A stretch of 64,000 nt of DNA. Source: Watersipora subatra (taxonomy: Eukaryota > Bryozoa > Gymnolaemata > Cheilostomatida > Watersiporidae). Within the stretch, counting starts at the first letter, position 1; every line of letters starts with the position of its first letter. The DNA lies in contig NC_088711.1 of the NCBI RefSeq assembly GCF_963576615.1, forward strand, positions 13,067,869-13,131,868, written 5' to 3'. A model generated the notes under the pieces. That model worked only from the letters and a program-made list of their open reading frames with translations. It was not told where the DNA came from and did no database searches. Shown in pieces: positions 1 to 37,384 of this stretch. Position numbers and translations under genes: made by a program.

Positions 1-919
1 CTGTAGCAAGTGAAGAAGCTGGTGCCGAACTTGCAGAGTTTGACGAAAACATTCCTTGGGATGAAAGGGAAGCAGAAGTGAAGAAACAGCAAATTGGAAA
101 GGCATCGAAGGTTTGTTTATGTGGTGTCAAGTTGTGGTATATCATGACTCTACTTGTATCATCGGGTGTTGAATGACTTCCTTTTTATAGGTAGAACAAG
201 AAATAGCCCTTCTGGAAAAGGAATTGACACCCGTTGAGCGATTTGCTGTCAATTTCTTGGAGGAAACTGATGAGCAGTTCACTGAAGATGCAATAAAAGA
301 AGCTGAGGTATGTTTGTTTTTCCCTAATTAAGGCAACCCCTTTGAGTTGAGATTGCAAGCATTTTCGTTGAGTTAATGTTGTTTTTCACCCATGTTTCAG
401 TTGGATATAGAAAAAGCTAAAAAAGACTGGGAGTTGAACCGACTAAAGGATAGACGAGAAGAAGAAGAACGACGAGCTGAGATGGAAGAGGATGATATGT
501 TGTATACTTACACAAAGGATGGGATGAATCAGGTACAAAGGGCACGGAAACGTGATAAAAATGTACCAAAGGCATCTGCTACCATTGAACCATCAAGAAA
601 ATCTAAGCGGCCGCCAATGCCTAAACTATTGGATTCCGAATCTGAAGACACGTTTGAACGTAAACCCAGAAAACCAACAGGTCGACCACGTGGGCGGCCA
701 AAAGGTAGCACAAAAAAATCAAAACAAAGCGTGTCTACTCCATTATCAAATTCTATTACTCAGCAATTTCTACACAGGGACCTAATACCACCAGTAAGTT
801 CTTCGCCGTTACAGAATGAGGGCGTGAAAAATCAGCGCGGGCTTTCTCCTACACCTTCAGACAGTAGTGATGTGGACATAGAAATTTCAACAACTCAACA
901 TTTGTGGGAGCAATCATGA
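1..919 (+). CDS. domino: Domino short isoform with AT-hook tail (alternative last exon)
   Basis: The third exon (401-532) ends at CAG|GTACAA, but its frame stays open past this site to a TGA at 917-919. The read-through adds 128 residues. This tail is basic, then acidic, and holds a canonical AT-hook core GRPRGRPKG (about nucleotides 680-706), a Ser/Pro patch (SPTPSDSSDVD) and no SANT domain. A poly(A) signal follows at 994-999. In Drosophila, domino is known to make DOM-A (EP400-like, SANT, Q-rich) and DOM-B (without SANT); vertebrate SRCAP carries AT-hooks. The structure seen here fits the same two-isoform design, made by choosing between splicing at 533 and cleavage after 999. That both forms are produced is inference from sequence; retention of an unspliced intron is the alternative. 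Confidence 0.72.
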
Positions 920-3900
920 TGCTAATGTTTTTTTTATTATTTATTTTTTATTATCTATTTGTTTTTGCAATGCTACCATAATGAAGTTGTTAAAATAAAT
1001 TGTACACCCATGCACCGTATTTATCTCTTGGTTGTTAGACTGGATTTCATTTCATATTCGGTTCTCACGTTACCACAGTTGCCAGTGCTAACAACTCAAA
1101 ATCAATTACCTTCCAGTCAAACATCCAAGAGTTAAGTGTGCATAGTGTGGAGTTGGTTTGACACTATCTGAAATGTGGTTGACTGAAGGTAGCGTGGGAA
1201 CCAGATGTTTCTAGCCACATTCAGGTCTGGTCAAAGCAAGCTTCAATTATAATCGTGGCTTGTCTTTGACATTGATCTGCTTTCTCTCATAGGCTTTTAA
1301 AGATAAAGTCACTGGAGAAAATATGCCGGTAAGTATTCACTTTGATTTTTTTACACTTGTTGTTTGCCAGTCACTGCACCATGCTACAGGTAATCATCAT
1401 TTTCTCCACGATTCAGATGTGGTGCCCTCCAACACCTCCCCATTCTGAAAATGATATCTACACTGATCAATCGATGTTCTTCTTGTACAACTCTGCGATT
1501 ATGACAGAATCTCAGCTTCCCCCGATCTATGTAAAGAAAGAGAAAAAACGCCGACACGAAAGTCAGCATCTTGGGGTTGCGAAAAAGAAGGCAAGACTGG
1601 TTGCTGAAGAAATAGTTCAAAATCAGTCTGGTTTAGCTAATAGGCCTCCCAGGTAAGTTTTGTCAAGGTAGCCTTTCAATGTTTGGAGGTTAGCTCACAT
1701 TTCATTCATTGAATCAATTCGACGCGCTGTTGCAGATCGCTATTTGATCGGCCGCAACTTCTGAAGATGAGACGTGACAAAACATTGATGAGGCATGGCA
1801 GTGTTTCAGGACAGCTTTCAATGAAGATGGGTGCTAGTGGCAATCTGCAACGGCCTGGCTCGTCTGACAGTAGTCATCAAGACCAACCGGAATGGTTAAT
1901 TCATGAAGATTGGTCTTTGCTTCAGGTAGTCAAAAATAGTTCAGTTTAAAAAAATTTATGTGATCATTTAAGATTCTACAATTGCTGATGGAATGCAGAA
2001 ACATCAAGCATGGGTGCCATTGTCAGACAACTTTATAAGCCATATTTACTGATAATGACCACTAAGCCCTAGTGTCTTGTTTGCAGTCGGTGCAAACCCT
2101 ACTGCAGCAGCCGCTCAATCTAATCGTGGCCTCACCTGCTCATGTTCCTAATTGGGACTTGGTTTCTGACATTGTGAGTACTACAAGTCGTATCTACAGA
2201 TCTGCAAAGCAATGCAAGACCCGATACGAAACGGTGATAATTCCACGAGAGGAAGGAAAGCTAATTTTTGATCCAAATCCGAGGAAACCATCGAAAAAAA
2301 TACCAAAATCCGTTTATAAGGTAAGTTTTTTGTCATTAGGTCTCATATCTGCATTGGATTTGGTATTTAATGTGGTTACATCTTTTGCATGTGTTTTGTA
2401 GACCAAAGGAAACAAACCGATGAGAACTGGACAGTTATACACCCAAGATAGTGGGAGTTCTGTCACCACACTTCATGCTTTTAGATTTGACTGTATAAAA
2501 AATGTTGCTAGCAAAAGAACTCCCACCCTGAAACCAACCCTAGTTAACCCTACACTTAAGAACCCGAAGCATGCTGCAGTTATTGCAGACAGTGGTAAGA
2601 TCTTTTAACAATGCTTCTACCGTTACTACTTTTTTCTGCAAGCTTTTCTACTTGGTGATGTCGATTTGCTGGTTTTCTAGGCATTCAATATGATTCCCCA
2701 ATGAACCCTGAGGAAGTGGCAAAAATTAGGCAAGAGCGGATTAAGAGTGAGAAGACTAAGGTTGGTAGCAATCCTTGTATTTCTTTGAGCTTTTATATCA
2801 ATGTATTTGCAAAACATAGTATAGATTGAATTTGTTGCAGTGTGCTCTACCAAGTTTTGAACAAACTTTGTAGAATTAGTTTGTTGTTTATTTAAAAAAG
2901 CATGCTGTGCGTTTGGTTTAATTGTATAATAATACCTTTAATTTCAATGTTTGGCATGTACCTGCCATGTGGGTTGTCCAACCACCATTCTCTAGCTCGC
3001 TTAGCTGGAATAATTTAAACGGCATCAGAGATGAAAGATACTTTGAAGAAATGTCATTTAAACAAGCCTCTTGTCATCAGCAATACCTACAATTAACATC
3101 AGTTGGATATATGCCAGGTTTAGGAAACTAGGCACTAAAACAAGATTTCACCATCGTATTAGCCTGCCTGGTCAGTAAAACAAAGCTGCCAATTTTGGTA
3201 ATACACGATTTTAACAAAAAAGCAATCTCGCGAAACAGATTTACGCTGGAAATGGGGATTCATGTATAAGAAAAAGAATGAATGGGTGATACTGGGTTTT
3301 GCTGAAGGAATACTGAAGTGCCTGCTTGAAGGCTGACACTATGGAGAAGTATATACCTTACTTTTCGGACTATAAACCGCACCCCTATATAAGCCGTATC
3401 TGCTTCATTTTCAAAATAGTGATAATAAAACTACATAAGACGCGCCTTTGTATAGGCCGCAGAACTCGTTACGGTGCTTTCTAGCGCGGCAGCAACTTTG
3501 CAGTTTAAAATGGAACAGTGCCTAACGGCACTGTTTCGTATTAACCAATGCTTTTCAACCTAATGCCTAATGGAACAGTACCGTTAGGAATTGTTCAGTA
3601 TTTTCTTTCACCGCTAGAGGCGCCCTAAACGTAGATTCTTGTTGATGCGCCCTAGCGATGAGGGCACAGCCACACCCTTATAAGCCGCATGGCTCAAATC
3701 GTCAGAAAAAAGTAGTGGCTAATAGTCAAATCCATTTACGTACAGTAATTATAGAAATCACATTTCAAAAGAAAATCCTTGCTATAGCAAGTTCAATGGA
3801 CGAGAATGGGACATTGTGTCCGATTCATCTCGTGAGTAGGATGTCAATATTTTATTTAGTTTTTTTATTTGCGATAAATTTGGAATTTCATTTTTAGTCA

Positions 3901-6900
3901 AGGACGGGTTTTCAAACTTAGTTTAGTGTCAAATCTTTGGCAAACACCGGAGTTCGCGGTAGATGGCATATGCTGCATTATTGGCCCAATGATTCCCCCA
4001 TTTTTTGTGGGAAAGTTCAGCGATGACATGTTTGTTTTAGGCAGAGCAGCAGCGTACCACTCCAAGTCAAACTAGTGTTCGAACTGGAAACACTGTGCAA
4101 CTGCAACAGTTCTCGTCGTCAGGCGGGTCCACTGCCATTATTGTGAGTTACATTTTGCAGTCCTAATTTAATCCAAATTTGTTCTGCATGAAGATTTTCC
4201 TTCTGTTCATAGTAGTGCTAATGTCTACATTCTAGTTCAATTCATGTTAGAACTCTTTTATTTTCATGTTGAGACTGAATCACATATTCATATAAAGACT
4301 TAGCTAGTGTAGTCATTGAATTTCAGGTCATTTGCAGATTCAGTTTTTTTGTACCTGCCTAAAGTACCATGTACACTGGAACAGCATTTTGCAAACGTTA
4401 ATGCGTAATTCCTCTATCACTGACTGTTCAAGACCATAGCAGTGGGTTGGGCTAAACATGCCGGTACAGATTAGCCAGTTTTTAGAAAACTAATGCTTCA
4501 TATGTTGTTGAATAAGTTGATTTACCCTAAAAATGGCTGATTTTATATGTGAATGCAGCCCAACAGGGCCTTAAAAAATCTTCATATTTTATATAATTCT
4601 GCGCAGTTAATAAATAAAATCCTTTATAAAGCTTGCAAAAAAATTCACATTGCAGTTATTTGGTATCAAAAGATTCACCATGTCTTACTCTGCTGTGTTG
4701 TAGGTGCAAAATGTGTGGAAATGTGATAACAGGTTATTATAAGCTCAAAAATGAACACGGGGAATCTTTTTGATACCAAATATCTGTAATTTTGTAATTA
4801 TAACTATAATTGTGAATTTTGCTGCAAGTCAACCATTTAGAATTAAAAATAATTGTTAAAAAAGCCATAAAAATAAGCATAGTCGAAGCTAGTTTTTCTC
4901 CCATTTCAAATTTTAACATGTTACTTTTTACATCCACTCCCTTAATTTTAATTTAAAATACGATTCTTGCGATTACTAGGCCGTTAAAAAGTTTTGACTT
5001 TGATAAGTTTATATCCGTCACATCTGTATCCTGATTGTTTAAGAGCCCTGCCACAAAGCAAGCCCTACAAGGGACTTCACTGTCTGCTGTCTCCATTGGA
5101 AGAAATAATAGTATTGTTGTCAGCAACTCCTTGGGGTCACTTAGTCGGAAACTTCCTAATCAAGCCACTAGTGTCATAAGTGGTATTACACAGGTAACTT
5201 AGCTTGTTGGGTTTGTCTTGTGGTTTTCACTGGCATGATCTGATTTACATGCTTAGTAGCTTTTCATATTCTCATCAGGGTGGTCGAAAAATGACTGTTC
5301 AAGAAATCCAGCAGTTGAGAAGCAGCACAACCGTAGCTCAGTTTGTAAAGCAAGTGCAAGCTGGCGGAGGATCGGTTACTGGTGTTTCTCAGGGTGGCTC
5401 CCAACGAACTAGTAAGTGCCACATTTTCTTCATGCTCATTTGTCTCAAGACAAGTCAAATTACTGATTACCTCATCAAGTTATCAGTGCCAACGTCTTGA
5501 TAAAGTAATGTGGTGGTAACACTCTGGGAGGGTTTGATCCCTTGCCAGCACTAAGAACATCAAACATTTTCTCGTCAGTGGTGTTAGTCTTTTGCATTTA
5601 CATCACCCTGTATTGTATGCCGAATTTGTATTGTTTGCAGTCACAGTACAACAAGGGCAGCAACCCATATCAATTGGAGGTGCCACAAAGCAACAATTCA
5701 ACCAGCTAAACATCTTGAGTCAGCATCAGACTAAACAGCGAGCTACTGGAGCCACTCTTGTTGCCCAAAGGACAGCTTCTGGCACTACGCAGGTATATAC
5801 ATGTGTATACATGCTTTCATAAAACCAGCTTGAGTGCTTTGTCAGCGCTCAAACTATTTTTTCATCACTGACAAACTTTCATTCATTAATACCTAACAAC
5901 TTGCTCGCCTTGAAATTAGCATAATTCCTGATATGCAAGCTTTTTACAATAGCAATATGATGTTACTCATATTGATACACAGTGGTGCACAATAGATGAA
6001 AGTTTTGCAACAACGCGCTAAAAATTTTCCAGGAATTGCAACCAACTCATGATTATATGTAGTTTTTACCTATATGCTGTGCAACTCATTTTACTGCTAA
6101 TTTTCTATCTAGAATATATATGTATTTTCTTCCGGCATGTGGCGGGTTTTGTATGTGAACATTTCCCGATGATCAACTAGCCAATCGGGGCAAAACAGCA
6201 GATACAAATATCAACCGTTCCTTATACATGCGAACTCCCTAGGTTTAATTGTTGCATCATTGCAAATTCATTGCTAGTTCTCCCTTTGAGCCTTGCGATG
6301 CCATGCCTTTGTAGTTGTTTTTCACTACTTTACTATGTATTTCTAGCTGCTGAGTGGACAGCAAATCCAACAAGCTAGCGATCAGGCACGCGTTCCCACT
6401 CTGGTGAAGACTGTCAGCTCTGTGGCTGGTTCTGCTACTACTAATATGACAATTCCTGTGAGCACAGGAGTCAATATTAATGTTACTCTTCCGCAGCAAC
6501 AAAAAACATTGGGTATGTTTGAATTTTATTCTGCTGCTGCAGGTAGCTTTAGTGAAAGACTTCCATTTGATAATTACAATCCTTTTCATATTGACATGAA
6601 TAACATTTAGACGATTTGGCTCAGGGCAGTGGAAATAACTAAAGCGTAGGCATTTTGTCCAAATTGCCTTGCGGATGGATGCTCAATTGGATGTGCTCCA
6701 AAACGATTTGATAACTGGTTATTAGAAACTGTAACATTATTTTGCAAAAGAGACCAACTCTGTCGATTTAGAACGACATCGATTTAGAACGACATCGAAA
6801 GACAGGAAATGGCTAGTGTAATGTCAACTTGGCTAGTTTGTTTCTGGCTGTTGTGAAACATTAGATGATTAAGCTTGATCATAAGTGCAGCAGTAGTTCA

Positions 6901-8817
6901 TCCATCCTGCTTGATTTTCTCTCGGTTTGTTGGTGGCCGTTTGTTTGTATACATTGTGGCACACTGTCAATGTCATCTCTAAGGTCTTTATTTAGGAGTT
7001 CAGTCTATCGATATGAAAGGCCTCTACTGACAAACTAGTTTGTTTCGTGTCAGTGAAAAAATAAAATCTCCACCAAGACTAGTCCTTTACAACTATTTAA
7101 TAAACATATCTTTCTTCTATCCACATACAATAAACGCTTCTCATCTTGAGCATTCCCTGGCATATATTGGCGCTAGAATATTTGACATAGACTTTAATGC
7201 TTTGGTTCTTGAAAACGTAAATTAATCTTGTCACTTTACAAGCAGTGCTTGTTTTGCACTGCTTGTAAAGTTCTACTAAAACTGCTACTAACCGATGTCT
7301 TTGTTGTTTACTAATTTTAGTAATACCTGAAGTGCTGCCACATGTGTTCTTTAATATTGTTGACAGGCGCCATAAGCAAGGCTGGTATCTCTGGCAGTCA
7401 GCCACACCAGTTCAGACAGATACAATTGCTTCACAATAATAAGCAGGTGACACGACCACAGCTCCAAAAGCTCAGTAAGTTCATTTATTCGACTCTTTGA
7501 ACCTATCTTGAGCCGTAATTTTTTGTTTGTACAATTGGTATTACTAATGATGTTTTTCGTCTAGGTCTTAGTCACCCACAGTTAGTTGGAAAATCAGGTG
7601 CAAGTGTTCAGATAGTCCAACAAAAAATCGGAGGTAAACAAATAGGAGTTCACCAAATTCAACAGTTGATAAAACAACAACAGTCGCAGCATGCTCAGAT
7701 TATAACGACCCCTGGGACATCTGGAGCTTCAGTTACAGGCACAGCTGGCCAGACAATCATAGCCACGACTCAACTCATAACCCCTGCCAACATGCACGGT
7801 TAGCATTTGCCATTGTTTGTCGGTTGTCATGTTTATTTCTCTATCACTAGTATGTAGACAAAGCTTTTTTCATTAAATAGTTTTTCTACATTTATGAATC
7901 ATTTTATAGCTACTATTACCAAAATGTCGGCACCCAACAGCTCGGCTGGTATATCCGGATCAGGCAGCAGCAATGTGACAGTGTCCTTGGCTCGTCCTGT
8001 CATCACAACCACCAACCCTGTTGCAATAGTGCCTGGAGCAGGCTCATCTCTTGTCACTCAGTCCCCGTCCAAGCTGGTTGCAACTAGCTCTGCTCGTCCA
8101 TCAGCTCACCGAGTAGCTGGAGCCATTACTGGCATTGTGTCGGGTGGAAATGCTGGCGCAACATCGGTTGTGAGTCTAGCGTCTGTAACTGTGCAAGGTT
8201 TGCAAAGCCAGGTAGGATCTAACATTGTGTTGACATATCTGACATGTGCGATTTTCAAAATCTGAGCGATTAATCATAATCTCTTTTCGTTGTAGCCTTC
8301 CGTATCCGCTTCCCTAATGGGCCATCGATCCGTTTCTTCAACTGATAGAACTGTCACTACCATGTCTCTATCCAAAGCCTATCAGCCACCATCTGTATCG
8401 CAGACAGCTGTTCGTACCCCCACAGTTGTGACGACAAATCCTGCAGGCATAGGCACTGCTGGTACAACAGTGTTACACCACACAATATTAACTAACAAGC
8501 CATCTGTTGTGAATTCAGCAACTCCTACCCTATCAGTAGGTCAGGCAGCTGTCACTCCGCCTATTGTAACACAGCCAGCTGTTCCCATAACACCCACAGT
8601 TGTAGTTCCAGTTCCAGATCCCCAGCTAGTTACATTGGCCAATGTTGGCAACACTGTTACCATAGCTACCACGCCAGCGCCAGAAATGCTTGCGAGTGAT
8701 AGTTCGCCTAATGCTGCTGGGCAACCCGACTCACCAGATGCTGAGCTGGCCGACTTACAAACAAACATACCAGATTCTACTAGAACGTATGCCATGAGAC
8801 CGAGAAAAACAACATAA
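1..8817 (+). CDS. domino/EP400: Domino/EP400-type chromatin remodeller, 3' part, long isoform
   Basis: Partial gene; the Snf2 ATPase lies upstream of the window. Exons: 3-110, 191-307, 401-532, 1293-1328, 1417-1652, 1736-1925, 2087-2320, 2402-2594, 2681-2760, 4041-4142, 5044-5193, 5279-5411, 5641-5792, 6347-6512, 7367-7474, 7565-7798, 7910-8211 and 8296-8817. All phases match and give 1064 residues. Diagnostic stretches resemble human EP400 as I remember it: LTPVERFAVNFLE, WCPPTPP followed by acidic residues, LPPIYVKKEKKRR, RSLFDRP, then a SANT/Myb-like domain at about residues 260-331 of the visible product (PEWLIHEDWSLLQ, NWDLVSDIV, SRIYRSAKQCKTRYE, IIPREEGK). Next come a QLYTQD motif and LKNPKHAAVIADSGI, then a long Q/S/T/V-rich low-complexity tail ending in a basic RPRK. 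In the family, this class provides the ATPase of Tip60/p400 and acts in H2A variant exchange. The identification is firm; exact borders of the low-complexity exons are less so. Confidence 0.93.
533..538 (+). promoter_or_regulatory. Isoform-deciding 5' splice site
   Basis: GTACAA follows the CAG that ends the third Domino exon. Splicing from here to 1293 gives the reading MNQ-AFKDKVTGENMP-MWCPPTPP, which lines up with the EP400 family. Ignoring it gives the AT-hook tail. The site departs from the GTAAGT/GTGAGT consensus used by several other exons of the gene, as expected for a regulated donor. Confidence 0.65.
994..999 (+). terminator. Poly(A) signal of the short Domino isoform
   Basis: A canonical AATAAA lies 75 bases after the short-isoform stop, in a T-rich stretch (927-961) typical of a 3' UTR. 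It sits inside the intron of the long isoform, so use of one excludes the other. Confidence 0.6.
2761..4040 (+). other. Domino intron 9 (1.28 kb)
   Basis: An intron between the exon ending EKTK and the exon beginning AEQQR. It contains the MITE described at 3353-3737. The remainder is AT-rich sequence in which I see no exon; the short open frame at 2922-3131 has no family resemblance. Confidence 0.6.
3353..3737 (+). mobile_element. Short inverted-repeat transposon (MITE), copy 1
   Basis: A second copy lies at 51354-51757. Both begin with a TTTTYGGACTATAAACCGCACCCC stretch (only its core CGGACTATAAACCGC is quoted as diagnostic) and end in the near inverse GCGGCTAATAGTC. They share internal motifs: ATATAAGCCG, two runs of GGAACAGTRCC around TAACGG, and TTTCACCGCTAG. 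The open frame at 3658-3897 is part of this element and its flank, not a gene. The superfamily is not certain. Confidence 0.7.
4628..4840 (+). mobile_element. Fold-back element, short copy
   Basis: Inverted arms carry TTTGGTATCAAAAGATTC (left) and its reverse complement near 4767, bounded by CTTGCAA/TTGCAAGTCAACC-type ends. The same family occurs as a solo arm at about 22080-22178 and as a full element at 47368-48264. It lies in Domino intron 10. Confidence 0.6.
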
Positions 8818-10505
8818 TCTTGATATATTATAAACTCCAAGTTTCTATTTATTTAATGTATTCTAACTTTATTAATTTTGTTCAACAGTTAGTGAATTGT
8901 GTACAATAGAATGTATAGTGACGTCATGAAAGGGCTTAAATTCATTTCTATCCAACAGTACCGTAGTTGTCAGAAAGTTTAAACAGGTAAGCATGTCCTA
9001 CATTTTGATAACTGAATTTTTTGTTTCTCAAACGTGCCAGTTTTATGCCAAAAATTGGTACATGTGTAAACTTGAGTGCCTACACAAATTCTGCGCAAGT
9101 TTTATGAAATACATTTGTTTGTTCTGCGCATTCCTAAGCTTCACAATGGGTAATGTCATCTGTTTCAGAACCTGGTTATTGGTCCTCAAGTGAACACGTT
9201 CCAGCCAAAGTAAGTATATTGTAATCTACATATGCCAATTGCGTTACTAATAGCTCAGTATGATGAAAAACTTGCCCTCTCTTAGTTGTACTCAAAAACC
9301 CTGCTGAAGAATGTGTATCGGCACTGTCAGACTGCTTACTCCCTTCATAGTTTGAAACCATTTTATTGTCTTCTTGAATTGATCATTTAAACATTGTTAT
9401 AGGTGAAGATTATGTGGAACTGCATTCCTTGAGACATTCGTATGACCAGGTTTGTGATATACGTTACATATTTAAAACACTGATATCAAAACAGATTTTT
9501 GTCAGTATTCCAAGATCGAGAATAGTACTGGCCACTGCTTTATTAGTGCCGGTTGATTTGCAATTGTCTTATAATAAGTCTTGTTAGAACACATGTTTTT
9601 GATCCATTCTAGTATTTCTGGTTGTGCTTTGTGAAGTGCAGTTGATGATTGAAAAAACTGTGGTTTGCACGGGTTGGTCATTATTACAGAAAACATTGAT
9701 GGACAGAAACATCGATTTCCCTCTTGACGTAAAACTTGAGTGGTAGCATCTCAGGTGAGCATACATCATTTTGAAGTTGAAAATATAGTGCCATAAAAGT
9801 ATTGAAACATTAACTAAAAACAAAATTATTATCTTCAGCACCTCATGTCAATAACACTAATGTCTACTGAGGTCCATTCCTTATGCTCTCCATGATGTAA
9901 CAATGTCAATGGTATTAGCACCGGCCATATTTCTTATATATTTCTTCGCAGAATTTCATCACGTTCTACTTGTCTTTGTGACATGAGAACACATTTGAGT
10001 GGAGAACAGGAAAACTAATAGACCACATGGTTGGTCAAACAGTAGTACGATAAAATCAACACAAAGTGGCTTTGCTGGTTATCATTTTTTGAAACTTTGC
10101 AATTTGTAAACAGCACTCAATATTGCTACGAAGTTTTTCGTCATTGCAGAATGAAAACTTCAGAAAAACCATCTTCTGACAGTTCCTTCTGACAGTGTAT
10201 TAATATAGAAAGCTTGTCAGAGATTGGTAATTATACTTGGAGCCGTGCTGATGGAACAAAAGGGTGCAGATGTAGTGATAGTGATGCGTTGTAAATCAAA
10301 AATATGAATAATGCAGTAAAATAATCACAGATAAGACACTACCTTTTTACCCATTCTAAATTTGAACATAGTTGTGATGAAACAATTTCCTTCTTCAATG
10401 CGTTACTGGCGCGTTGAAAAATTTCTGTAGTATACAGTTTTTGTGTAAATGTCAGTGTGTTGGAACATTTGTAGTAATGCACTTGGTTGTAGAGTCAACT
10501 TTATT
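8818..10505. other. Downstream flank of Domino, no gene recognised
   Basis: AT-rich sequence after the long-isoform stop. No clean AATAAA follows the stop within 200 bases; a TATAAA is present at about 8829. Several small pieces end in splice-like sites (for example AAACAG|GTAAGC near 8985 and GACCAG|GTTTGT near 9450), so alternative 3' exons are possible, but I cannot link them in frame. Confidence 0.4.
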
Positions 10506-11299
10506 AGTTTATATCCCCAAGTTATTGCTGCATCCTGTATTATTTTAGATCCCTGTCATGAAAAAAGCCCTACAATAAACTGCAGGTTCACTGTCCATTG
10601 GGAAAACCACAATTATTGTTGCCCCCATTAGAAAAACCAAAAATATTGTTGCCCGCAACTCATTGGGGAAACTTCCAAAATTTCCAATCATCATTAGTGG
10701 TATTACACAGGTAACTTAGCTTGTTGGGTTTGTCTTGTGGTTTTCACCGGCATGATCTGATTTACATGCTAAGTAGTTTGTTATATTCTCATCAGGGTGG
10801 TCAAAAAATGACTGTTCAAGAAAAGCAGCAGTTGAGAAGCAGCACAACTGTAGCTCAGTTTATAAAGCAAAGTCTAGTTGGCGGACGACCGGTTACTGGT
10901 GTTTCCCACGGTGTCTCCCACCGAACTAGTAAGTGCCACATTTTCTTCATGCTCATTTGTCTCAAGACAAGTCAAATTACTGATTGCCTCGTCAAGTTAT
11001 CAGTGCCAACGTCTTGGTAAAGTAATGTGGTGGTAACACTCTGGGAGGGTTTGATCTCTTGCCAGCACTAAGAACATCAAACATTTTTCTTGTCAATAGT
11101 TCTTTGTCTTTTGCATTTATATCAACATGCATTGTATGCTGAATTTGTATTGTTTGCAGTCACAGTACAAGGGCAGCTACCCATATCAATTGGAGGTGCA
11201 ACAATTCAACCAGCTAAACATCTTGAGTCTGCAGCAGTCCAAACTGAGAACTACTGGAGTCGCTGTTGCACGGAGGAAAGCTTTTGGCACTATACCGGT
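10506..11299 (+). pseudogene. Decayed duplicate of Domino exons 11-13
   Basis: The stretch matches 5004-5792, introns included. The copy of exon 11 (about 10560-10710) is badly altered, with in-frame stops. The copy of exon 12 (10797-10929) is still open and keeps its CATCAG acceptor and GTAAGT donor (MTVQEKQQLRSSTTVAQF). The copy of exon 13 (11160-11299) lost 8 bases in GGTGCCACAAAGCAACAATT and is frameshifted. Because the introns are as similar as the exons, the duplication looks fairly recent. An element with CAGTCAAAC ends lies directly behind it. It could still be used as alternative exons, but the frameshift argues against a full-length product. Confidence 0.82.
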
Positions 11300-11310
11300 A
11301 TATACATACA

Positions 11311-13616: not shown

Positions 13617-14760
13617 CCAGCAGTACGAAAGAAACCTGCAGCATGAGGAGGGACAATGACTACTAATTGATGACCATCTATCTATCAGGTGAGATATCTC
13701 GCCATCCTTTTTTACACTGCAGCTTTTGATCATGTTGTTGATGATTATCATACGCCGCCCCAGGCTTAGTTGTTATGATGATAGGTTATTCTATGAAACA
13801 ATATCCTTCATCTATTCATGCCCTGATCATTTCTTGGACATTCTAGACTGTTCTTTCTTGTTTTAGTCTGCTGAAAAACTTCCAGCTCGAAGGAACCATG
13901 ACTACTAATTGATGACCATCTATCAGGTTAGATATCTCACCATACTTTTTTACACCGCAGCTTTTGACCATGTTATGTTGTTGATGATTATCATACACCG
14001 CCCCAGGCTTAGTTATTATGATGATAGGTTATTCTATGAAACAATATCCTTCATCTATTCATGCCCTGATCATTTCTTGGACATTCTAGACTGTTCTTTC
14101 TTGTTTTAGTCTGCTGAAAAACTTCCAGCTCGAAGGAACCATAACTACTAATTGATGACCATCTATCAGGTTAGATATCTCACCATACTTTTTTACACCG
14201 CAGCTTTTGACCATGTTATGTTGTTGATGATTATCATACACCGCCCCAGGCTTAGTTATTATGATGATAGGTTATTCTATGAAACAATATCCTTCATCTA
14301 TTCATGCCCTGATCATTTCTTGGACATTCTAGACTGTTCTTTCTTGTTTTAGTCTGCTGAAAAACTTCCAGCTCGAAGGAACCATGACTACTAATTGATG
14401 ACCATCTATCAGGTTAGATATCTCACCATACTTTTTTACACCGCAGCTTTTGATCATGTTATGTTGTTGATGATTATCATACACCGCCCCAGGCTTAGTT
14501 ATTATGATGATAGGTTATTCTATGAAACAATATTCTTCATCTATTCATGCCCTGATCATTTCTTGGACATTCTAGACTGTTCCTTCTTGTTTTAGTCTGC
14601 TGAAAAACTTCCAGCTCGAAGGGATAACGACTACTAATTGATGACTATGTATCAGGTAAGATATCTCACCATACTTTTTTACACCGCAGCTTTTGATCAT
14701 GTTATTGATGATTATCATACGCCGCCCCAGGCTTAGTTCTTATGGAGATAGGTTATTTTA
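13617..14760 (+). repeat. 243-bp tandem array of exon-like units
   Basis: About four and a half units of some 243 bp, three nearly identical. Each unit begins with a 60-base block preceded by TTCTTGTTTTAG or TTCTTGTTTCAG (a good 3' splice site) and followed by CAG|GTTAGA, GTAAGA or GTGAGA (a 5' splice site). Block positions: 13617-13688, 13867-13926, 14110-14169, 14353-14412 and 14596-14655. The rest of the unit would be intron. All frames of the block hold stops (one reads SAEKLPARRNHDY then stop). The repeated 66-codon open frames starting at 13909, 14152 and 14395 are by-products of the repetition. Confidence 0.88.
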
Positions 14761-15946
14761 TGAGACCATTTTTTTGTATTCGTGACTCAATCATTCTGGT
14801 ACAGCAGTTCCAGTTACAACTGATGTTATTTCATTGAAGTTGCTGCTAGGATGTGAGAATTGGTCATGAGCTATGGGGCCTATACAAATGACTAAAGGAG
14901 TGAGACGCTAAACTTTTCCAGCCTGTGAAAAAATTACTCTGAGTCATCAACATTTGATGAGCACATAGGGCATAATAGGCAAAATTATGATCTGTCGTGA
15001 ATCTTCTGTTGGCTAAATGCCTCTGCTAATAGAGACTCATTTTATTCACCATCATGTTGTTTTTTTATAATCAATTTAAGGTTTAATTTATCATTGTATA
15101 AAGTATTGTAACTGGTTTTTGACAGTTTTTAATTTCAGTTCAAAACAAACGCTTAGTAGTCTTATTTTTTGTTTGTTGCCGATTTTGACAATTCAAATAG
15201 CCTAAGCTCATCTACTATCTGTACTTGATTACTCATGAGTGAGTAATGAGAGATTATTCAACGAATCTAGCAAAATGTGAAACAAATTTCAGACTGCATA
15301 GTGGAGCACCTGTTCAACTGCTCGTAATAAAATGTAAATGGTAATGTAAATTTTCATTGTTGTAACCACACCGATGCAGTGCAAGTGGGACAAGTAGAAT
15401 TTGAACCTTTATTTTAATAATCAATCATATCTGCTATGCGCTGCTAGCACCACATACCCTCTGACAACATCTCATGTTTTTGTGATTAGCTTTATTTGAT
15501 CTATAAATATTTAAATAAAATGTGGACACAATGTTGCGAAAATGTTAGACAGTGCGCAAATACAATTGAGAATGAGGCTAATGGTAAGCTTGCTAATGGC
15601 TTCTCTAAAAATTTGCTCATGCAGTGGATACCCTCATCATCTTTACCTGATACATGTATGTACATGTTGACACGAGTTAGCAAATATGCCTGAATAGGAA
15701 TTCATGAATCGAACTTCAAGAAATTCTTCATTCTCGTTGGTAATGGCAACTCTTCAATGAACACTTGCGTGGAAAGCTGCTGAGTGATAACATCTCTGCA
15801 TAGTGTTTGTAAAGTCTCACCTTCAAAAGATGATTGTATAGAAAATAAAGGTCCTAATCAAAATTTCAGTGTGCAAATCGTGATGGTGGGCTTTTGTTAG
15901 AACATCAAAACTTGAAATGCTGAAATACGCAATTTTCAGCGGTAAT
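14761..15946. other. No gene recognised
   Basis: AT-rich sequence after the tandem array. Short open frames at 15496-15693 on both strands have no family resemblance and no convincing splice context. Confidence 0.45.
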
Positions 15947-26002: not shown

Positions 26003-29000
26003 TTACTCACTTGTTGTAAGTTGAACTATTTGTATCTGTTTTGTGGTACCATACACATCAAGCACAGGCCAGAGAGGACCGTCGTGCAACCTAAAATTAT
26101 ATGCGCTGGGTTATAGCTGAAGGATAGTACCAACACTAATCGTTCCAACCAGTTCACACAAGTGATTCGAAATTGCCTGTGGCTTGTGTGTCGCAGTGAT
26201 TCATCCTACACTATTCTAGGGCTAAATACTTGTTTGCTATCCAATATCCAATAAAATTCACGCTTTTTCAGCCAAAAGAATTGATGATCTGGTATATGTT
26301 TACACGATTAATCCTCCAGCAGCAATTCTCTACATTAATAAAATAATACCACATTTAAATGATCACGTTTTTCATCAGTTCTATTTACTTACGGTATATT
26401 CTTAGCCACTGGCCCGTATTCCTCACCGTTTACTATTATATACAGATCGCCTTTCTTCCCATTCTTAGTGAACATCATGCCTAAATAAACAACCCAATAA
26501 CGCACAATGTCAATGGCTTTTGCAGTGTTTGGTGTTGTGCAGTTGAAATCAAATTGTCAGTAGTTACTGCAATTACACAATAACACTTTAATCTTGTACC
26601 AATATGTTAACAAAAAAAGTCAAACCAACTAAATTAAACTCCTTATTGTAATGGCAAATTCCATACACCGTAAAACTTGTATTTGAACGCCATGCTTTAT
26701 TTGAACGTCACCTCTAAGAAAGCGCCACTATAAGGGAAGGGCTGAAAAATAGGGCACCATGGCATTCAAATAAAAGGTTTTATGGTATGATAAAACCTAT
26801 AATCTTAGCCATACTATCAAATGTTTAAATGTATATTTCTAAAATCTTGTTGAAAAATTTCCATTCAAACTTTCAAACTTCAAGGCCGTTGAGTCATTTG
26901 GCAGACATTCCTGTTACGCCTGTAGAGAGTTTCAAGTGATTAAAGATTACAACTACCAAATCTAATTAGGGCAGCAAGCAGAGGATGTTACCGTTTTGCC
27001 AGATGCAGTTTATTTAGATAGAGCTATGTCATATCATTTAATACATTAAATTTATTTCTCTAATATTTACAATAAAATATTGAAATCATAATTATTAAAA
27101 AATTATACAAATAAATTTCAAAACACTTGACTTTTTCATTGCTATAATTTTCCCTGATGTTTGCTGCAAATACACTAGGTAACCAACTTTTTAATCTTGC
27201 TAATGATGTCATACACTACATTGTTTAGTTACCACTCATTAACACTTGGGCAATTGACAGCTTATGTTAGTTTGCAGTTGACCATTAATAATGCCAAGAG
27301 AAACCCATATCGACTTTTCCCCATTTCTAATATTCTGTCTTCCCTGTTTTACTTTTCCCCCGAGTTTATCTTTCTACGATGTTTACCTTTCCACGTTTTT
27401 ACTGTTCCCATGTATAATTACTCTCATGTTTACTTTCCAACATCTTTTTACACTATGAATTATCATGTTGCTAACCTATATATGTTTGAATCAAGAGTGA
27501 AAAGGTTCGATTTGCAATACTTAATTTAAATTATGAACAGTAGCTACATAAAACAATATTTGCTGAACTTCTTTATATATAATATTTCTAGTACAGGTAG
27601 CTTCTCGTCTTCAATAATGTCTAGTACAGGTGGCTTCTCATCTTCAATAATGTCTAGTACAGGTAGCTTCTCATCTTCAATAATGTCTAGTACAGGTAGC
27701 TTCTCGTCTACAATAATGTCTAGTACAGGTAGCTTCTCGTCTTCAATAATGTCTAGTACAGGTGGCTTCTCATCTTCAATAATGTCTAGTACAGGTAGCT
27801 TCTCGTCTTCAATAATGTCTAGTACAGGTAGCTTCTCATCTTCAATAATGAGTAGAATCATTCTGAAGACAAGTTTTAACTCTTACACTGCTCATTGACC
27901 GTGCTGTGATATCATAATTTTCTGAAACCTGACAAACGCTTTGAAAAATCACAAATATTCAAAGCATACACCAATATAAAAAAATTTTTTTAGCCGTCCC
28001 TGTTACCTTCATTGTCGTTCTCTGGCTGCCTCTCTTCGCAGCCTTCTTCGCTTGTCCACATTGTGGGTAAGAAATTAAGGATATGTACTAACGACAATAC
28101 GTTTTTTAATTTTAAATCTAGAATTCCTTAAAAAGATTATTCACGTGTTTTGGAACAAAAAAAAATTGGAAGGTCTTTTGTTTGCAAAGGTTAATTAAAT
28201 TTGTGCAAAACTATATAGAGCCTTTGTATATGTGATACCATAATTTCCTGATGCATGACAAACACTTTGAAACAATACAAACACATGTACGTGTATTAAA
28301 CAGTATTGAGATTCTTCTAATTTATTCCTATCATAATACTGAAGACATGGCACATGACCAACTAACGGACACACTAGTATCCTGGCAGTCAGTGTGTTAT
28401 GGGTGATCATCAGGTGTGCAGATGCAGCAGAGAATAAGCATCTACAGAGTTATTTTGAAACACCTACATCAATCGACCGCCTGCTAGAATATTGCAATGT
28501 TCGAATCCCGATTATAACAATATTTTATCTCAACCCGTAACCGTGGTTTTCGAGATGTCGCTGAGACACGTAATCTTTTGAGCATATATGCTCACTATAA
28601 TGTGTTTTTTATTCACCAAGATTTTTTTAAGCGTTTTTGAACATCAAAAAATAAGATCTTGTTTGATTAAAATCTGGTGAAACGATATACAGTCTTTGTA
28701 TCTGTGATATCATATTTATTCTTATCTAATTACTGAAGAGCATGATACATGGCTAAGTACCACTCGCTAGTATCCTGACAGTCTAGGGTGCGGTGAGTGA
28801 TCACGGAGACCGACTACAGGCAAAGTTTTTATTAAACCTCTAAACCTAGGTGTTCCAATGGCCCTGGTGATGGAGCATTGGTGTTCCAATGGCCCTGGTG
28901 ATGGAGCATTGTGATTGGTCTACCAAGCTGAATGCTACGAGTTTGAATCATGCTTACAACAGTCTCGTTATCTCCCCCTGTAACCATAACTTATCTCCCC

Positions 29001-32000: not shown

Positions 32001-35000
32001 TATATCTCCACAAAAATGAGATCAGTATATTTGCTGAATTTATCAGTTATGTTGCTCAGATATGAATAAAAGTAATTCGTCAGTATAAAAATTTGATATA
32101 TTAGAAAACTGTAATCTTGCTAAAAACCATCACGCTGAAGCGCTTTATAAATCAGCCACCCTCAATCTTGTAGAAAAATCTTGTACTATAATAAGACCGA
32201 TGTTCCATAAAGTTAAATAATTCTCACGCTGCCTACAACTTATTTAATGTGAACAAACAGGCCCAAGGCTCAAATTAGTAACTCAAGAACGCACGCATCA
32301 AGGACAATTGTTGCCCTCAATGAATGTGTTGTTCATGGATTGCTGTCGTGAAAGCAGCGAAACATTTTGCAGTGAAAATAAAAGAAATTGCAAGCAATGC
32401 TTAATACTAGTTCATTAGATATTTATATCTAGTGATAACAACTCACAGCTTATCATATTTGTTAGTCTGGTAAGTAGAGGTACTATTACCATCCTCAATA
32501 GTAGACTGTAGAAAGTATCATAGGTTTCAGTCTAGTTTAGGAAAAGATGAGCAGATACCATTCCAGATACTCAACCATGATATTGGTGCAGATACCGTTA
32601 TTGATACTAAGATAGGACATCTCTACTTAACATATGATGAACTCAGATACACACCGCTAATATACACACCTTGTGATTAAATTGACCAGAACTGATATGA
32701 TGTTGTAAAGATTTGCCGCTTCAAAACAAAAGTTTAGATGAATTCATTAGAACATAAAATGCTAGAAAGGTAAACTACATATTTAAATATGGCCAACATC
32801 GTGACATCACGATGGCATCGCGTTCATCATACACAAAAACAATTATTTTCTCTATCAAAATAGGTTCATAGGATAGGACTTAATGTTAGAGGAGCAATTA
32901 GGTTAATATACATAGTAGTCCTATAAGCTAGTTCAGATGAGGACAAATGTTCAGTCAAACCTAGGACAAAACCTTGTAACAAAATTTGTTTGGGTCAAAT
33001 GATGGATTTGTCAAGGATTTATGAAGATCGATTTATGAAGATAAAATTGTTAGAGGAGAGGAGATCAATATGATTGGGTTGTTAGAGTCTTTGTTGCCTC
33101 CCTATTGGATGAAGCTAGATCGGTACTACGGGTTAATCGTTTGGTGGGAAAGCAAGCCGTACCAATGCAATTTGTAGTCTATGACACAGAGTGTAATAAT
33201 AAATTGATAGGGATAATTAAAGATGGCTCAATTGAAAATTTACCCGATTCTAAATGAAAGCATAGCAAAATAATATATACCCTAAGACACTTTTATTTCG
33301 CTAGTATTTAGTTTCGTGAGTAGCACACAGAGTAAAATTTCGCTGCAACTTAATTTCGCGGCTCTGATGAATGCAAAAATATTGTGATGTGAAAATAAAT
33401 GCAGTGGAAAAAAAACAGATTACATTCATCAGGTCCAGTTCACTAATAAGAAAAAAAATTCAATTTGGGACTAGTTCGTATTTGTAAACCGCAGGTTGAA
33501 ATGTGTGGGTGAGATCGATAATTCAATTTGATCACTTGTTGCCATTTGTTTCTTGGACTATCAATGACGTCTAGGTCCCTCACGCCGTGACTTTCACACT
33601 CGAATCCCAAGAAGAAGAAAATAGATAGGTAACAACCAACTTCACAACCAAAACTGTATAACCCTTTCGCTGCCAGAAACGCATTTATGCGTTTTCTAGG
33701 GGCCACTGCCATAAACGCATTTTTGGACTTTCTCAGCAATTGCGTGGTAACCTGATTTTATTATTCGTTGACCACATAACCCACGGTCTTTAAGAGTTTT
33801 ATGAAATTGACTGTGTTGTCCGAAGATTTCTCTATAAAATCAGCCTAAAACAACGAAGCAATTTTAAACTTTTGTTTGAGAATTTCTAATCTAAAAACAA
33901 ACATTTTTCTGTGAGTTCATTAACTACCGCGCGCGAGTCATAAAACAGGTAATTAGTTGCTGATGACATTATAGCCAATTAAGATTTAGATTTTCGTGAT
34001 TATACAGATAATTAAAGTAGCAGCACCGTCTCTGACAGTGGTGAAAGTAATAGTTTTGTAAGAGTAAGGAACATTGTGGAGGATCGTTTTAGCTTTGGAT
34101 CGATCGTAGCTTTACATAGCTTTATCATCGCGCACAAGTAGAGAAACATTGAATTTTTGGATAGCAATATTGGTTAAAATGTTGGCAAAATAAAATTTGT
34201 AACAAAAATGTTCTAGATAGAGATCGAACTTGAACAAATACTGTATACATATCATGAAGCAATATCGGCAATTTCGGCAAAATGGCTGGCACTAGGCCGA
34301 TAGCGAAATTGTACATGGTTGGCAGTGAAAAAGATAATGTGGTTGAACCTGATGAGGGTTGATATTGTATTTGGTTGGTAATAAAATTCATCACTACAAT
34401 AATTATTCTTCAATTTTATGACTTCACCTACCAGACTTGCATCCTCATCAGTTACAAATTCGGCGACTAAACTGATATCATCTTAATTTGCTTTGCCATG
34501 CTGCTCAGTCGGTGTATTAGCTATAATGAGTTTACCAGAAACTTTCCATTGAGCCCAACCACAGGCGAAAATTGTCTGCATTTCTAATAAGACGATACTA
34601 TTGTGGATATCAATGAACAAAGCTATTTAATTTTGCGTTTTCGCTCGTTCGTTATGATAGTTTAGTTTCGCTCATGAAATTTTTGCGAGAGGATGACACC
34701 GCGAAAATGCGAAAGTTAGATGACGCGAATACATAAGTGTCCTAGGGTATTATATATAATTATATATATGGCCAGAAAAACTCTGAGATCCGACTACCCA
34801 GACAAAACACTTAACCACTTACATTTACAAAACACTAAAGCATTACTTTAAGTAAATGTCCTGGTGTCAACTAGGTATGTAACATTTAACATCAAGAAGG
34901 GAAATGGTAACCTGGGATGTCTGTCATGACTCACCAAGCGATGTGATGAAATCTGGTAGAGCGTATTGCGGCAGTTTAAATCGTGTATTCGGATTGTGCT

Positions 35001-37384
35001 GTGTCAGTCCAATCCTCAGGTGACCGCTCCATCCCTTCTGGTTGCTCAGGATCTCAACCAAAAATATTTCTCTCTGAAACCAAGTGATCACGTACCTTAA
35101 GACACCATGGTCGTCAAGCTATTTAGTTATGGGTGCCATGGTCACTCGCTCATCACACTCGTGTGCTGGATCATTCATTCCCAATTATCCTAACAGCTAC
35201 ATTCATCTTTGTTGTAACACTAGTAGAGGTTTGGCTACACACACTGACAAAATACATGTGGTGCGTAGCCAACACAAGGGCATAGCATTATTGATGCATC
35301 GTGTAGAAATGGACATCTTGGACTATGTCAGTAGAGAGAAAAGCTATGCATCTGTAATTTGCGGAAATGGTTTCTTCTAACAGCCGTAACCTTGATTCTA
35401 TTTTGTTTTCCAACGCAAACTAGTTTGCTTTAATATTCACTTCAGAACAGCAATAACAACCTGGCTTCACAAAAACAAGTACTTCTATATGGACAAAAAT
35501 ATGTTCATTTGTAAAAAATGTGTTGGGCTACCAGTGCAAATTGGAACTGTTCCTTCATTTGTAAAAAATGTGTTGGCTACCAGTGCAAATTGGAACTGTT
35601 CCTTCAATTGTAAGAGATGTGTTGGCTACTTGTGCAAATAGGAACTGTTCCTTCATTTGTAACAGATGTGTTGGCTACCAGTGCTAATTGGAACTGTCCC
35701 TTCATTTGTAAGAGATATGTTGGCTACCAGTGCTAATAGGAACTGTTCCTTCATTTGTAAAAAATGTGTTGGCTACCAGTGCCAATTGGAACTGTTCCTT
35801 CATTTGTAAAAAATGTGTTGGCTACCAGTGCAAATTGGAACTGTTCCTTCAATTGTAAGAGATGTGTTGGCTACTTGTGCAAATAGGAACTGTTCCTTCA
35901 TTTGTAACAGATGTGTTGGCTACCAGTGCTAATTGGAACTGTCCCTTCATTTGTAAGAGATGTGTTGGCTACTTGTGCAAATAGGAACTGTTCCTTCATT
36001 TGTAACAGATGTGTTGGCTACCAGTGCTAATTGGAACTGTCCCTTCAATTGTAAGAGATGTGTTGGCTACTTGTGCAAATAGGAACTGTTCCTTCATTTG
36101 TAACAGATGTGTTGGCTACCAGTGCTAATTGGAACTGTCCCTTCATTTGTAAGAGATGTGTTGGCTACTTGTGCAAATAGGAACTGTTCCTTCATTTGTA
36201 ACAGATGTGTTGGCTACCAGTGCTAATTGGAACTGTCCCTTCATTTGTAAGAGATATGTTGGCTACCAGTGCTAATAGGAACTGTTCCTTTATTTGTAAG
36301 AGATGTGTTGGCTACCAGTGCTAATAGGAACTGTTCCTTCATTTGTAAGAGATGCGTTGGCTACCAGTGCTAATAGGAACTGTTCCTTCATTTGTAAGAG
36401 ATGCGTTGGCTACCAGTGCTAATTGGAACTGTTCCCTCATTTGTAAGAGATGTGTTGGCTACCAGTGCAAATAGGAACTGTTGCCAAAACCTTTCAGATA
36501 ATTCTTCCACTAATTCATTCTATTGAAATGCGTTTTTTACACAGTTTAATTCATGTTGTAAACAAAAATTTTTTTGTACTTTCCTGTTCAACTATTAATA
36601 TGTTGGTTTTTTGAGTAAAAATATAATAATGTAAAATCTGCACAAAAACATTGTTATCACAAATTACTGATGATCCTTATTAAATAATAGATATGTTGAT
36701 GATGTTTGAAAAACAGCGATGGAAAACCAGCAAGGACGGCATGGCTTTTACGCAACTGTGGGCAACTTTCACTGGTCAATCTACATTTTTCACGGTGATG
36801 TGCGTGTGTGTGCGTGCGCATGACAGAATGCATACCTGTTGGCTACGCATTCTGTCAGTGAGTAGGCAATAGCACTTACAATTCACGTCTCCAAAATAAT
36901 GACAAAGCTGTAATTAGCAAACATTAGAGGTTATCCTCAGAATACATAATGAGTACTGTTTGCTAAATACAGCGCTCATTACAATACATATTGATATATT
37001 ATAGTTGCAAACCTCCAACACTTACAAATAACAAAATATTAGGTAGGTGAACTTACGACATACCCTACTTAAGCTATAAATTAACTTACTGTATGCTAAT
37101 AACTTTGTGTTAATCTTATGTTACTACGTAATGACGATTAAGGAATGAAGACTACATATGCAGTCGATTGATATTAACAAGATACAAAGAAAAGCCAAAC
37201 TGTCTGATTTAGAGGTCACCAAAACACTCACTTGGTTTAGAGGTCGGTCACCAAAACAAAGGCCATGGGCGTAGCTACATGTCCGAGTGGCTGTGTTTCC
37301 ATCATCTGATATATGAATATTTTGACCGTGGTGAGAATGGAAGCGCATCGGTTGCATCTCTAAACATAGAATACGTTGAACCAT
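26003..37384 (-). CDS. NEURL2: Neuralized-like protein with one NHR domain (NEURL2-type)
   Basis: Exons on the minus strand: 37384-37232, 35073-34935, 31610-31500, 29999-29871, 26480-26393 and 26090-26003; every phase matches, giving 235 residues. The NHR domain fills the product: [11 protein letters not shown] and [12 protein letters not shown], then [58 protein letters not shown] and WPVLDVYG...IQIVQL. The order and spacing match vertebrate NEURL2, the muscle ubiquitin-ligase adaptor (Ozz) built of NHR plus SOCS box. Here TTSE-stop follows the NHR and no SOCS box was found. The last exon ends across a strong GTGAGT (26010-26005), so a further exon may exist. Start could be residue 1, 10 or 13; an acceptor-like TATGTTTAG precedes residue 10. 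Introns hold three minisatellites and several MITEs. Confidence 0.87.
26667..26786. mobile_element. 120-bp MITE with ACCGTAAAAC termini
   Basis: Left ACCGTAAAACTTGTATTTGA and right TCAAATAAAAGGTTTTATGGT are inverted copies. It lies in an intron of the NEURL2-like gene. Confidence 0.7.
27590..27850. repeat. 33-bp minisatellite
   Basis: About eight units of TCTAGTACAGGTAGCTTCTC plus CGTCTTCAATAATG. Because 33 is a multiple of three, both strands stay open ([10 protein letters not shown] repeats on plus, [11 protein letters not shown] on minus). It lies in the intron between exons 4 and 5 of the NEURL2-like gene, so I do not call it coding. Confidence 0.9.
28200..28810. repeat. Two partial copies of one dispersed sequence
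   Basis: TTTGTATNTGTGATAYCATA, AATTACTGAAGA/ATACTGAAGA, CATGRYACATG and CTAGTATCCTG recur at about 28215-28400 and 28690-28790, with a shorter relative near 27905. It is intronic in the NEURL2-like gene. Nothing coding is seen. Confidence 0.5.
28847..29026. repeat. Short local tandem duplications
   Basis: GTGTTCCAATGGCCCTGGTG and the following 11 bases occur twice in a row (about 28850-28911). TTATCTCCCCCTGTAACCATAAC is then repeated nearly three times (about 28967-29030). Confidence 0.75.
29130..29870 (+). repeat. Dispersed repeat, second copy
   Basis: Matches the sequence at 23690-24318 plus 25590-25690. It is uninterrupted here, which shows that the Tigger element inserted into the other copy. 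It abuts exon 4 of the NEURL2-like gene. Confidence 0.55.
30990..31264. repeat. 14-bp minisatellite
   Basis: About 19 units of CCTAGACCTATGTC with small variations. It lies in the intron between exons 3 and 4 of the NEURL2-like gene. Confidence 0.9.
33280..34747. mobile_element. 1.47-kb element with CCCTAAGACACTT termini, TA-flanked
   Basis: Left CCCTAAGACACTTTTATTTCGC and right (inverted) CCCTAGGACACTTATGTATTCGC are paired, with TA on both outer sides. Subterminal sequence is rich in TTTCGC/GCGAAA. A smaller inverted pair, CGCTGCCA near 33668 and TGGCAGTG near 34318, marks a possible nested element (about 33660-34336). No transposase is seen. Confidence 0.68.
35500..36482. repeat. 47-bp minisatellite with dimer structure
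   Basis: About 21 units built on TTCATTTGTAAGAGATGTGT plus TGGCTACCAGTGCTAATTGGAACTG. Between about 35600 and 36240 two unit types (CTTGTGCAAATAGG and CCAGTGCTAATTGG) alternate as a higher-order dimer of about 94 bp. It lies in the first intron of the NEURL2-like gene. Confidence 0.92.

What the first reader, a model, noticed from the sequence alone, without database searches (positions are those of the whole stretch)
401..1328. One Domino gene appears to encode both an EP400-like and an SRCAP-like product through an alternative last exon
The third visible exon is open past its donor at 533 into a 128-residue tail with a canonical AT-hook (GRPRGRPKG), a stop and AATAAA at 994-999. Splicing at 533 instead leads to the SANT domain and Q-rich tail of EP400. 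Drosophila domino is known to make two such isoforms; vertebrates are known to use separate SRCAP and EP400 genes. Seeing the same layout here suggests that the choice between splicing and early polyadenylation is old and sets the balance of two remodelling complexes. It would be notable if this animal has no separate SRCAP gene.
Basis: partly seen in the sequence, partly recalled or inferred. Interest (0 to 1): 0.85.

Follow-up and report, generated by a model that had tools for sequence, protein, structure and literature searches.

The report
One Domino gene, two alternative tails
This animal seems to have a single gene for a chromatin motor that vertebrates split into two genes (SRCAP and EP400), and it appears able to give the protein either a short DNA-gripping tail or a long EP400-type tail; flies and other arthropods are known to do something similar.

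Summary
Exon 401-532 stays open past its donor for 128 codons to TGA at 917-919. The tail holds an AT-hook (RPRGRPKGS, identical to HMGA1); AATAAA lies at 994-999. Splicing 532 to 1293 instead gives the EP400 SANT end. The tail looks coding: 38 of 88,045 local non-coding starts stay open as long, and codon use is exon-like. The gene is a SRCAP/EP400 mosaic: HSA plus motor score best with human SRCAP (881 bits; EP400 542), the long C-terminus with EP400 (294 bits). In the 784-Mb genome the HSA and SANT exons each match once, and none of 21 other SNF2 loci looks SWR1-like, so a separate SRCAP gene is unlikely. No transcript was seen: intronic polyadenylation is inferred. An in-phase GTAAGT donor at 794 leaves an AT-hook insertion into the long form as a rival or third product. 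The tail does not align with SRCAP; it shares only an AT-hook. Two Domino C-termini are known in Drosophila and reported in other arthropods, so this is a new member of a known kind. The phylum was not determined.

The parts
3..110 (+). shared exon (continues upstream of the window)
   Evidence: spliced model, phase 0; residues 4-91 of the three shared exons match human SRCAP 2262-2352
191..307 (+). shared exon with the ELTPVERFAVNFLEE motif
401..532 (+). third visible exon, common to both products
   Evidence: its last part aligns only with EP400
533..919 (+). extension of the third exon: 128-codon alternative C-terminal tail and stop TGA (917-919)
   Evidence: open frame and codon score
680..709 (+). 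AT-hook GRPRGRPKGS
   Evidence: only PDB match of a 27-aa stretch is HMGA1 (2EZD/2EZE), nine residues RPRGRPKGS identical, E 0.55
533..538 (+). donor GTACAA, no G at +5; competes with use of the tail
   Evidence: 7 of the 9 visible donors have G at +5, this one and 1926 do not; by plain matches to CAG|GTAAGT (6 of 9) it ties with four others
794..799 (+). possible alternative donor GTAAGT, phase 0, would insert 87 residues with the AT-hook before exon 1293
   Evidence: sequence match only
920..1040 (+). presumed 3'UTR and poly(A) region of the short mRNA; AATAAA at 994-999, GU-rich TTGGTTGTT near 1029
   Evidence: sequence; GC 17.5% over 920-999
1293..1328 (+). first exon of the EP400-like end
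   Evidence: phase 0, GT-AG
1417..2760 (+). EP400-like exons 1417-1652, 1736-1925, 2087-2320 (SANT region), 2402-2594, 2681-2760
   Evidence: human EP400 294 bits, E 1.7e-86 over residues 39-440 of the 442-aa translation
2761..8817 (+). Q/S/T-rich remainder of the EP400-like end, several exons, not modelled exon by exon; last open stretch 8296-8814, stop just after it
   Evidence: open frames only

Best explanation
This is the 3' part of what looks like the animal's only SWR1-type ATPase gene, the counterpart of Drosophila domino. The pre-mRNA carries a composite terminal exon: exon 401-532 has a donor without G at +5, followed in frame by an AT-hook tail, a stop and a poly(A) signal. If the 3'-end machinery acts at about 1010-1030 before the donor at 533 is used, a short mRNA results whose protein has the HSA and SRCAP-type motor plus an AT-hook tail and no SANT (SRCAP/DOM-B-like). 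If the donor is used, transcription runs on and the mRNA encodes the EP400-type SANT and Q-rich end (DOM-A-like). Shown: gene structure, homologies, intact frame, one genome match each for the HSA and SANT exons. Inferred: that both mRNAs exist, that polyadenylation is the switch, and that the two proteins serve an H2A.Z-exchange complex and a TIP60/NuA4-type complex.
For: Layout and coding signals. Mosaic homology: HSA plus motor exon pieces upstream of the window score SRCAP 880.6 bits, yeast SWR1 588, EP400 542, INO80 418, while the spliced end scores EP400 294. Shared exons alone: SRCAP 35.8, EP400 24.3 bits. Motor motifs intact (DEMGLGKT; DEAQ across a GT-AG junction), whereas human EP400 reads DEAGLGKT and DEMQ in the same alignment. 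One HSA match and one SANT match genome-wide; of 22 SNF2 gene loci the next best reaches 202 against 683 bits of self-match. Precedent: DOM-A/DOM-B share 2008 residues, differ in the C-terminus and build separate complexes; isoforms with different C-termini are reported in bee, wasp, ant, beetle and spider (PMC7239659, passages). SRCAP's C-terminal AT-hooks are implicated in H2A.Z at AT-rich sites (PMC11808731, passages).
Against: No transcript data. Apart from the AT-hook the tail matches nothing in the PDB, and the 247-aa short end matches no Pfam family; with the tail attached, the shared exons hit EP400 entries and not SRCAP. An in-phase GTAAGT donor at 794 offers another use of the AT-hook stretch. 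The donor at 533 is not the weakest by plain consensus matches. AATAAA alone is weak evidence (by my own estimate about one is expected in 760 nt of such AT-rich DNA), and the rest of the intron is nearly as GC-rich as the tail. The tail holds one AT-hook, SRCAP three.
Confidence: 0.77

Rival explanations
1. Alternative 5' splice site: the donor at 794 is spliced to 1293, so the AT-hook is an 87-residue in-frame insertion in an EP400-like protein and no SRCAP-like short form is made from here. A small intron 794-860 is a further possibility, since an acceptor-like site ends at 860; it would lead to a stop after six codons.
For: CCA|GTAAGT at 794 matches +1 to +6 perfectly (7 of 9 overall, better than the 6 of 9 at 533), is in phase 0, and exon 1293 starts in phase 0.
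Against: The frame stays coding-like after 794: 794-916 scores 0.145, reached by 1.4% of 419 non-coding 41-codon open segments; its other two frames score -0.78 and -0.50. Its GC is not unusual (15.8% of segments reach it). AATAAA follows the stop. By simple counting a GTAAGT hexamer in 384 nt has a chance of about 0.1, about 0.03 in phase.
Confidence: 0.13
2. Chance read-through: the open frame past 532 is a non-coding intron, at most retained in unspliced RNA.
For: No homology of the tail to a known C-terminus; GC of the rest of the intron is close to that of the tail.
Against: 128 open codons (about 4e-4 by local counts), exon-like codon use and a nine-residue perfect AT-hook.
Confidence: 0.05
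3. The short form exists but is a truncated, regulatory EP400-type protein; a separate SRCAP does the H2A.Z exchange and was missed.
For: Genome searches were six-frame and exon by exon, only best candidates were scored, several SNF2 loci are held in part, and the motor-exon search was asked 18 times without an answer.
Against: The motor here is SRCAP-type and intact; HSA and SANT exons match once each, although the human SRCAP and EP400 HSA regions score 127 and 120 bits with this gene's two HSA pieces (the genome query was the first 65 residues); no second SWR1-like gene among 22 SNF2 loci.
Confidence: 0.05

Closest known systems
Drosophila domino (DOM-A / DOM-B), and arthropod Domino orthologues reported to have two C-termini
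   Same: One SWR1-type gene; shared HSA and motor; a long end with SANT and Q-rich region or a short alternative end; no separate SRCAP gene found here.
   Different: Here the short end carries an HMGA-type AT-hook and reads through from an exon; DOM-B's short end is described as folding 'in no predictable manner' (PMC7239659, passages). I did not see the exact 3' exon structure of fly dom-B. Complex membership was shown in fly, not here.
Human SRCAP
   Same: Motor and HSA closest to it; C-terminus with AT-hooks. By extrapolation the end of exon 401-532 falls near SRCAP residue 2380, and SRCAP's last exon begins between codons 2334 (exon 33) and 2389 (exon 34).
   Different: SRCAP (3230 aa) runs on for hundreds of residues with three AT-hooks; the tails do not align.
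Human EP400 (p400)
   Same: The spliced end aligns over about 400 residues including the SANT region.
   Different: EP400's own motor is further away (542 against 881 bits) and differs at DEAGLGKT/DEMQ.
HMGA1 AT-hook (2EZD)
   Same: RPRGRPKGS identical.
   Different: Only the short motif is shared.

Membership tests
SWR1/SRCAP/EP400 (Domino) ATPases | HSA domain plus split INO80-class motor closest to SWR1/SRCAP/EP400 | tested here: met
   on 518 aa of exon pieces joined by me: SRCAP 880.6 bits first, SWR1 and EP400 next, INO80 418
EP400 / DOM-A type | SANT-containing C-terminus homologous to EP400 | tested here: met
   E 1.7e-86 (by homology to EP400; Pfam named no SANT domain)
EP400 / DOM-A type | Q-rich terminal region | tested here: inconclusive
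   Q/S/T-rich open stretches to 8814 seen, exons not modelled
SRCAP / DOM-B type short product | ends without SANT | tested here: met
   frame ends at 917-919, before the SANT exon; as a reading frame, not as an mRNA
SRCAP / DOM-B type short product | AT-hook in the C-terminal tail (SRCAP) | tested here: met
   one hook here, three in SRCAP (PMC6570847, passages)
SRCAP / DOM-B type short product | tail homologous to SRCAP C-terminus | tested here: not met
   no PDB hit at E<=10, with a 3230-aa SRCAP chain (6igm_H) in the library
SRCAP / DOM-B type short product | assembly into an H2A.Z-exchange complex | not testable with these tools
   no protein or RNA data held
Composite terminal exon with intronic polyadenylation | polyadenylated transcripts ending inside the intron | not testable with these tools
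   no RNA data held; only AATAAA 994-999 and a GU-rich stretch
Single-gene (Domino-like) organisation | no second SWR1-type gene in the genome | tested here: met
   the motor-exon search did not complete, so not exhaustive

The most novel reading that the evidence does not exclude
The choice between a short AT-hook end and a long SANT end on one SRCAP-type motor is the ancestral animal state, set by competition between a donor and an intronic poly(A) site; vertebrate SRCAP and EP400 arose when a duplicated gene parcelled out these two isoforms, after which EP400's motor decayed and SRCAP lost the SANT end.
Probability: 0.4. Interest if true: 0.72.

Novelty: new member of a known kind. Interest (0 to 1): 0.5.

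Why it matters
If both mRNAs exist, this animal makes its H2A.Z-exchange motor and its TIP60-type scaffold from one gene by a 3'-end choice. The mosaic (SRCAP-type motor, EP400-type end) is what an unduplicated ancestor should look like. It makes the idea that vertebrate SRCAP and EP400 are 'fixed isoforms' directly testable, and gives a candidate switch with a measurable donor and poly(A) site. The AT-hook in the short tail links it to the part of SRCAP lost in Floating-Harbor syndrome (PMC6570847, passages).

Tried and rejected
Pfam on both predicted ends gave no significant family: none for the short end, one sub-threshold TMEM247 match (E 0.31) for the long end. PDB search of the tail alone: no hit at E<=10. 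Relatives of the SANT exon in bacterial/archaeal and viral contigs: none confirmed, as expected for an animal gene. Rfam (gathering threshold) and tRNA scans of the window: nothing. Phylum: not settled. Telomere motif, chromosome-scale contigs and short introns were considered, but none is decisive, so I do not name it. Asked of the genome and never answered: COX1 for the mitochondrial code (PF00115, 4 times), SRCAP-complex and NuA4 partners (PF05764, 7 times; PF10513, 2 times), the tail (7 times) and motor exon 5 (18 times); so presence of both complexes and uniqueness of the tail are not tested. Two segments (661-793, 855-916) were cut out of frame by me and say nothing. The hairpin after AATAAA might affect 3' processing; I have no evidence for that and left it out of the mechanism. 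Print searches for two C-termini outside arthropods: (listings; one search showed 20 of 30 papers, 15 of 348), plus passages of nine papers. I found no such report, but the library lacks most subscription papers and no paper was read whole.

Full report
What is there. The window opens inside a gene on the + strand. Three exons (3-110, 191-307, 401-532) are shared by either product. The third stays open past its donor for 128 codons to TGA at 917-919, with an AT-hook at 680-709 and AATAAA at 994-999. The donor at 533 joins 1293-1328 and then five further exons up to 2760, all in frame with GT-AG introns.

Is the tail coding? 38 of 88,045 start positions in the non-coding part of the window (tandem arrays masked) stay open this long, and the gene's other eight visible donors read through only 0 to 39 codons. 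The codon score is positive in this frame and negative in the other five, and 1 of 31 non-coding open stretches of 80 codons or more scores higher. GC of the tail is 43.5%, like the exons (43.2%) and unlike the other introns (36.0%), and falls to 17.5% in 920-999; but the rest of this intron, 1030-1292, is 41.4%, so GC is weak support. The stretch after 794 scores as coding by itself (1.4% of 419 null segments reach it; its GC is not unusual). RPRGRPKGS is identical to the HMGA1 AT-hook, the only PDB match of that stretch (E 0.55, a very short query). I take the tail as real coding sequence.

What the gene is. The spliced route matches human EP400 at 294 bits over some 400 residues including the SANT region. 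The shared exons alone score higher with SRCAP (35.8 bits) than EP400 (24.3); SRCAP aligns with residues 4-91, and the last part of the third exon aligns only with EP400. Against this, the 247-residue short end as a whole hit only EP400 entries (about 22 bits) and not SRCAP. The upstream part of the gene, fetched from the same genome (window = C4:13067869-13131868), has an HSA domain and a motor. 518 residues of exon pieces joined by me score SRCAP 880.6, yeast SWR1 588, EP400 542 and INO80 418 bits. Thus the motor is SRCAP-type and the long C-terminus EP400-type.

Is there a second gene? Of 56 SNF2 exon matches, which I grouped into 22 gene loci, only Domino matches its own motor exons strongly: 683 bits against at most 202 for any other locus (several loci are held only in part, so their sums are lower bounds). 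The HSA exon and the SANT exon each find one place in 784 Mb. As a yardstick, human SRCAP and EP400 HSA regions score 127 and 120 bits with this gene's two HSA pieces, so a paralogue of either kind should have been seen unless its exons are cut differently or it is missing from the assembly. The motor-exon search never got an answer.

How it most likely works. The donor of the third exon (CAG|GTACAA) lacks G at +5; 7 of the 9 visible donors have it, the exceptions being this one and 1926, though by plain consensus matches it ties with four others. An in-frame tail, stop, AATAAA and a GU-rich stretch follow, and the intron is 760 nt where the other seven are 80-161. That is the anatomy of a composite terminal exon: early polyadenylation gives the short AT-hook protein, splicing gives the SANT protein. 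The rival is a perfect in-phase GTAAGT donor at 794 that would insert the AT-hook into the long protein. Both could occur. None of this is shown at the RNA level.

Known and new. [quoted passage not shown] DOM-B builds the SWR1-type and DOM-A the NuA4-type complex. The authors report two C-termini also in honeybee, jewel wasp, an ant, flour beetle and house spider and suggest that this may be widespread in arthropods (PMC7239659, passages). So the kind is known. What this case adds: an AT-hook in the short end, as in SRCAP, whose AT-hooks are lost in Floating-Harbor syndrome (PMC6570847, passages) and are tied to H2A.Z at AT-rich DNA (PMC11808731, passages); a clear mosaic of SRCAP motor and EP400 end; and evidence for one gene in a whole genome. 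By extrapolation the exon end falls near SRCAP residue 2380, while SRCAP's AT-hook-bearing last exon starts between codons 2334 and 2389, which fits a common layout but is not an alignment.

Limits. The phylum is not determined. Contigs of this genome end in TTTGGGG repeats, not the TTAGG that I recall as usual in arthropods, but that does not name the animal. Tail homology to SRCAP was tested and not found, so I call the short product SRCAP-like in motor and in carrying an AT-hook, not a SRCAP orthologue in its tail.

Noticed in passing
L035, L039, L040, L041, L042, L044, L046, L048, L050 (ends of contigs C1, C3, C4, C7, C9, C10, C11): Ends of the large contigs carry long arrays of the 7-mer TTTGGGG/CCCCAAA: 9 of the 16 sampled ends of eight large contigs (some of the other seven are partly N), none in the starts of C12 and C13; no run of three TTAGGG or TTAGG in any of the 18 stretches. 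An unusual telomere for an animal as far as I recall; one print search listed 19 papers, no title about it.
   Followed up: partly
window 9984-10171 and 10498-11307: Decayed partial copies of this gene downstream: 643-834 (in the AT-hook tail) at 66% with frame-breaking gaps, and 4997-5802 (Q-rich exons and introns) at 82%. The tail match scores 82.5 bits; best of 200 dinucleotide shuffles 28.3.
   Followed up: partly
window 998-1154: A strong fold-back directly after AATAAA (stretch 990-1240: -77.7 kcal/mol, z -4.57, 0 of 200 shuffles as stable; arms 1021-1063 and 1093-1135 72% complementary). Could be a decayed palindromic element or act on 3'-end processing.
   Followed up: partly
window 61545-63998: 818-residue open frame running off the window, rich in repeated S/T-P-K motifs (SPKAS, KSPK) in about 30-residue units; linker-histone-like or nucleolar look. 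It was among the 102 frames scanned, which does not say which frames matched its three families.
   Followed up: no
window 34927-35118 (- strand): Open frame with a Neuralized-like (NHR) stretch WSGHLRIG found by a recalled pattern; Pfam Neuralized matched 2 of 102 open frames, presumably this one among them.
   Followed up: no
window 13649-14763, 27587-27850, 35504-36482, 38441-39195, 53127-54208, 60621-61091: Many minisatellite arrays (periods 243, 33, 49, 32, 16, 35, 39) in a stretch with few long open frames.
   Followed up: no
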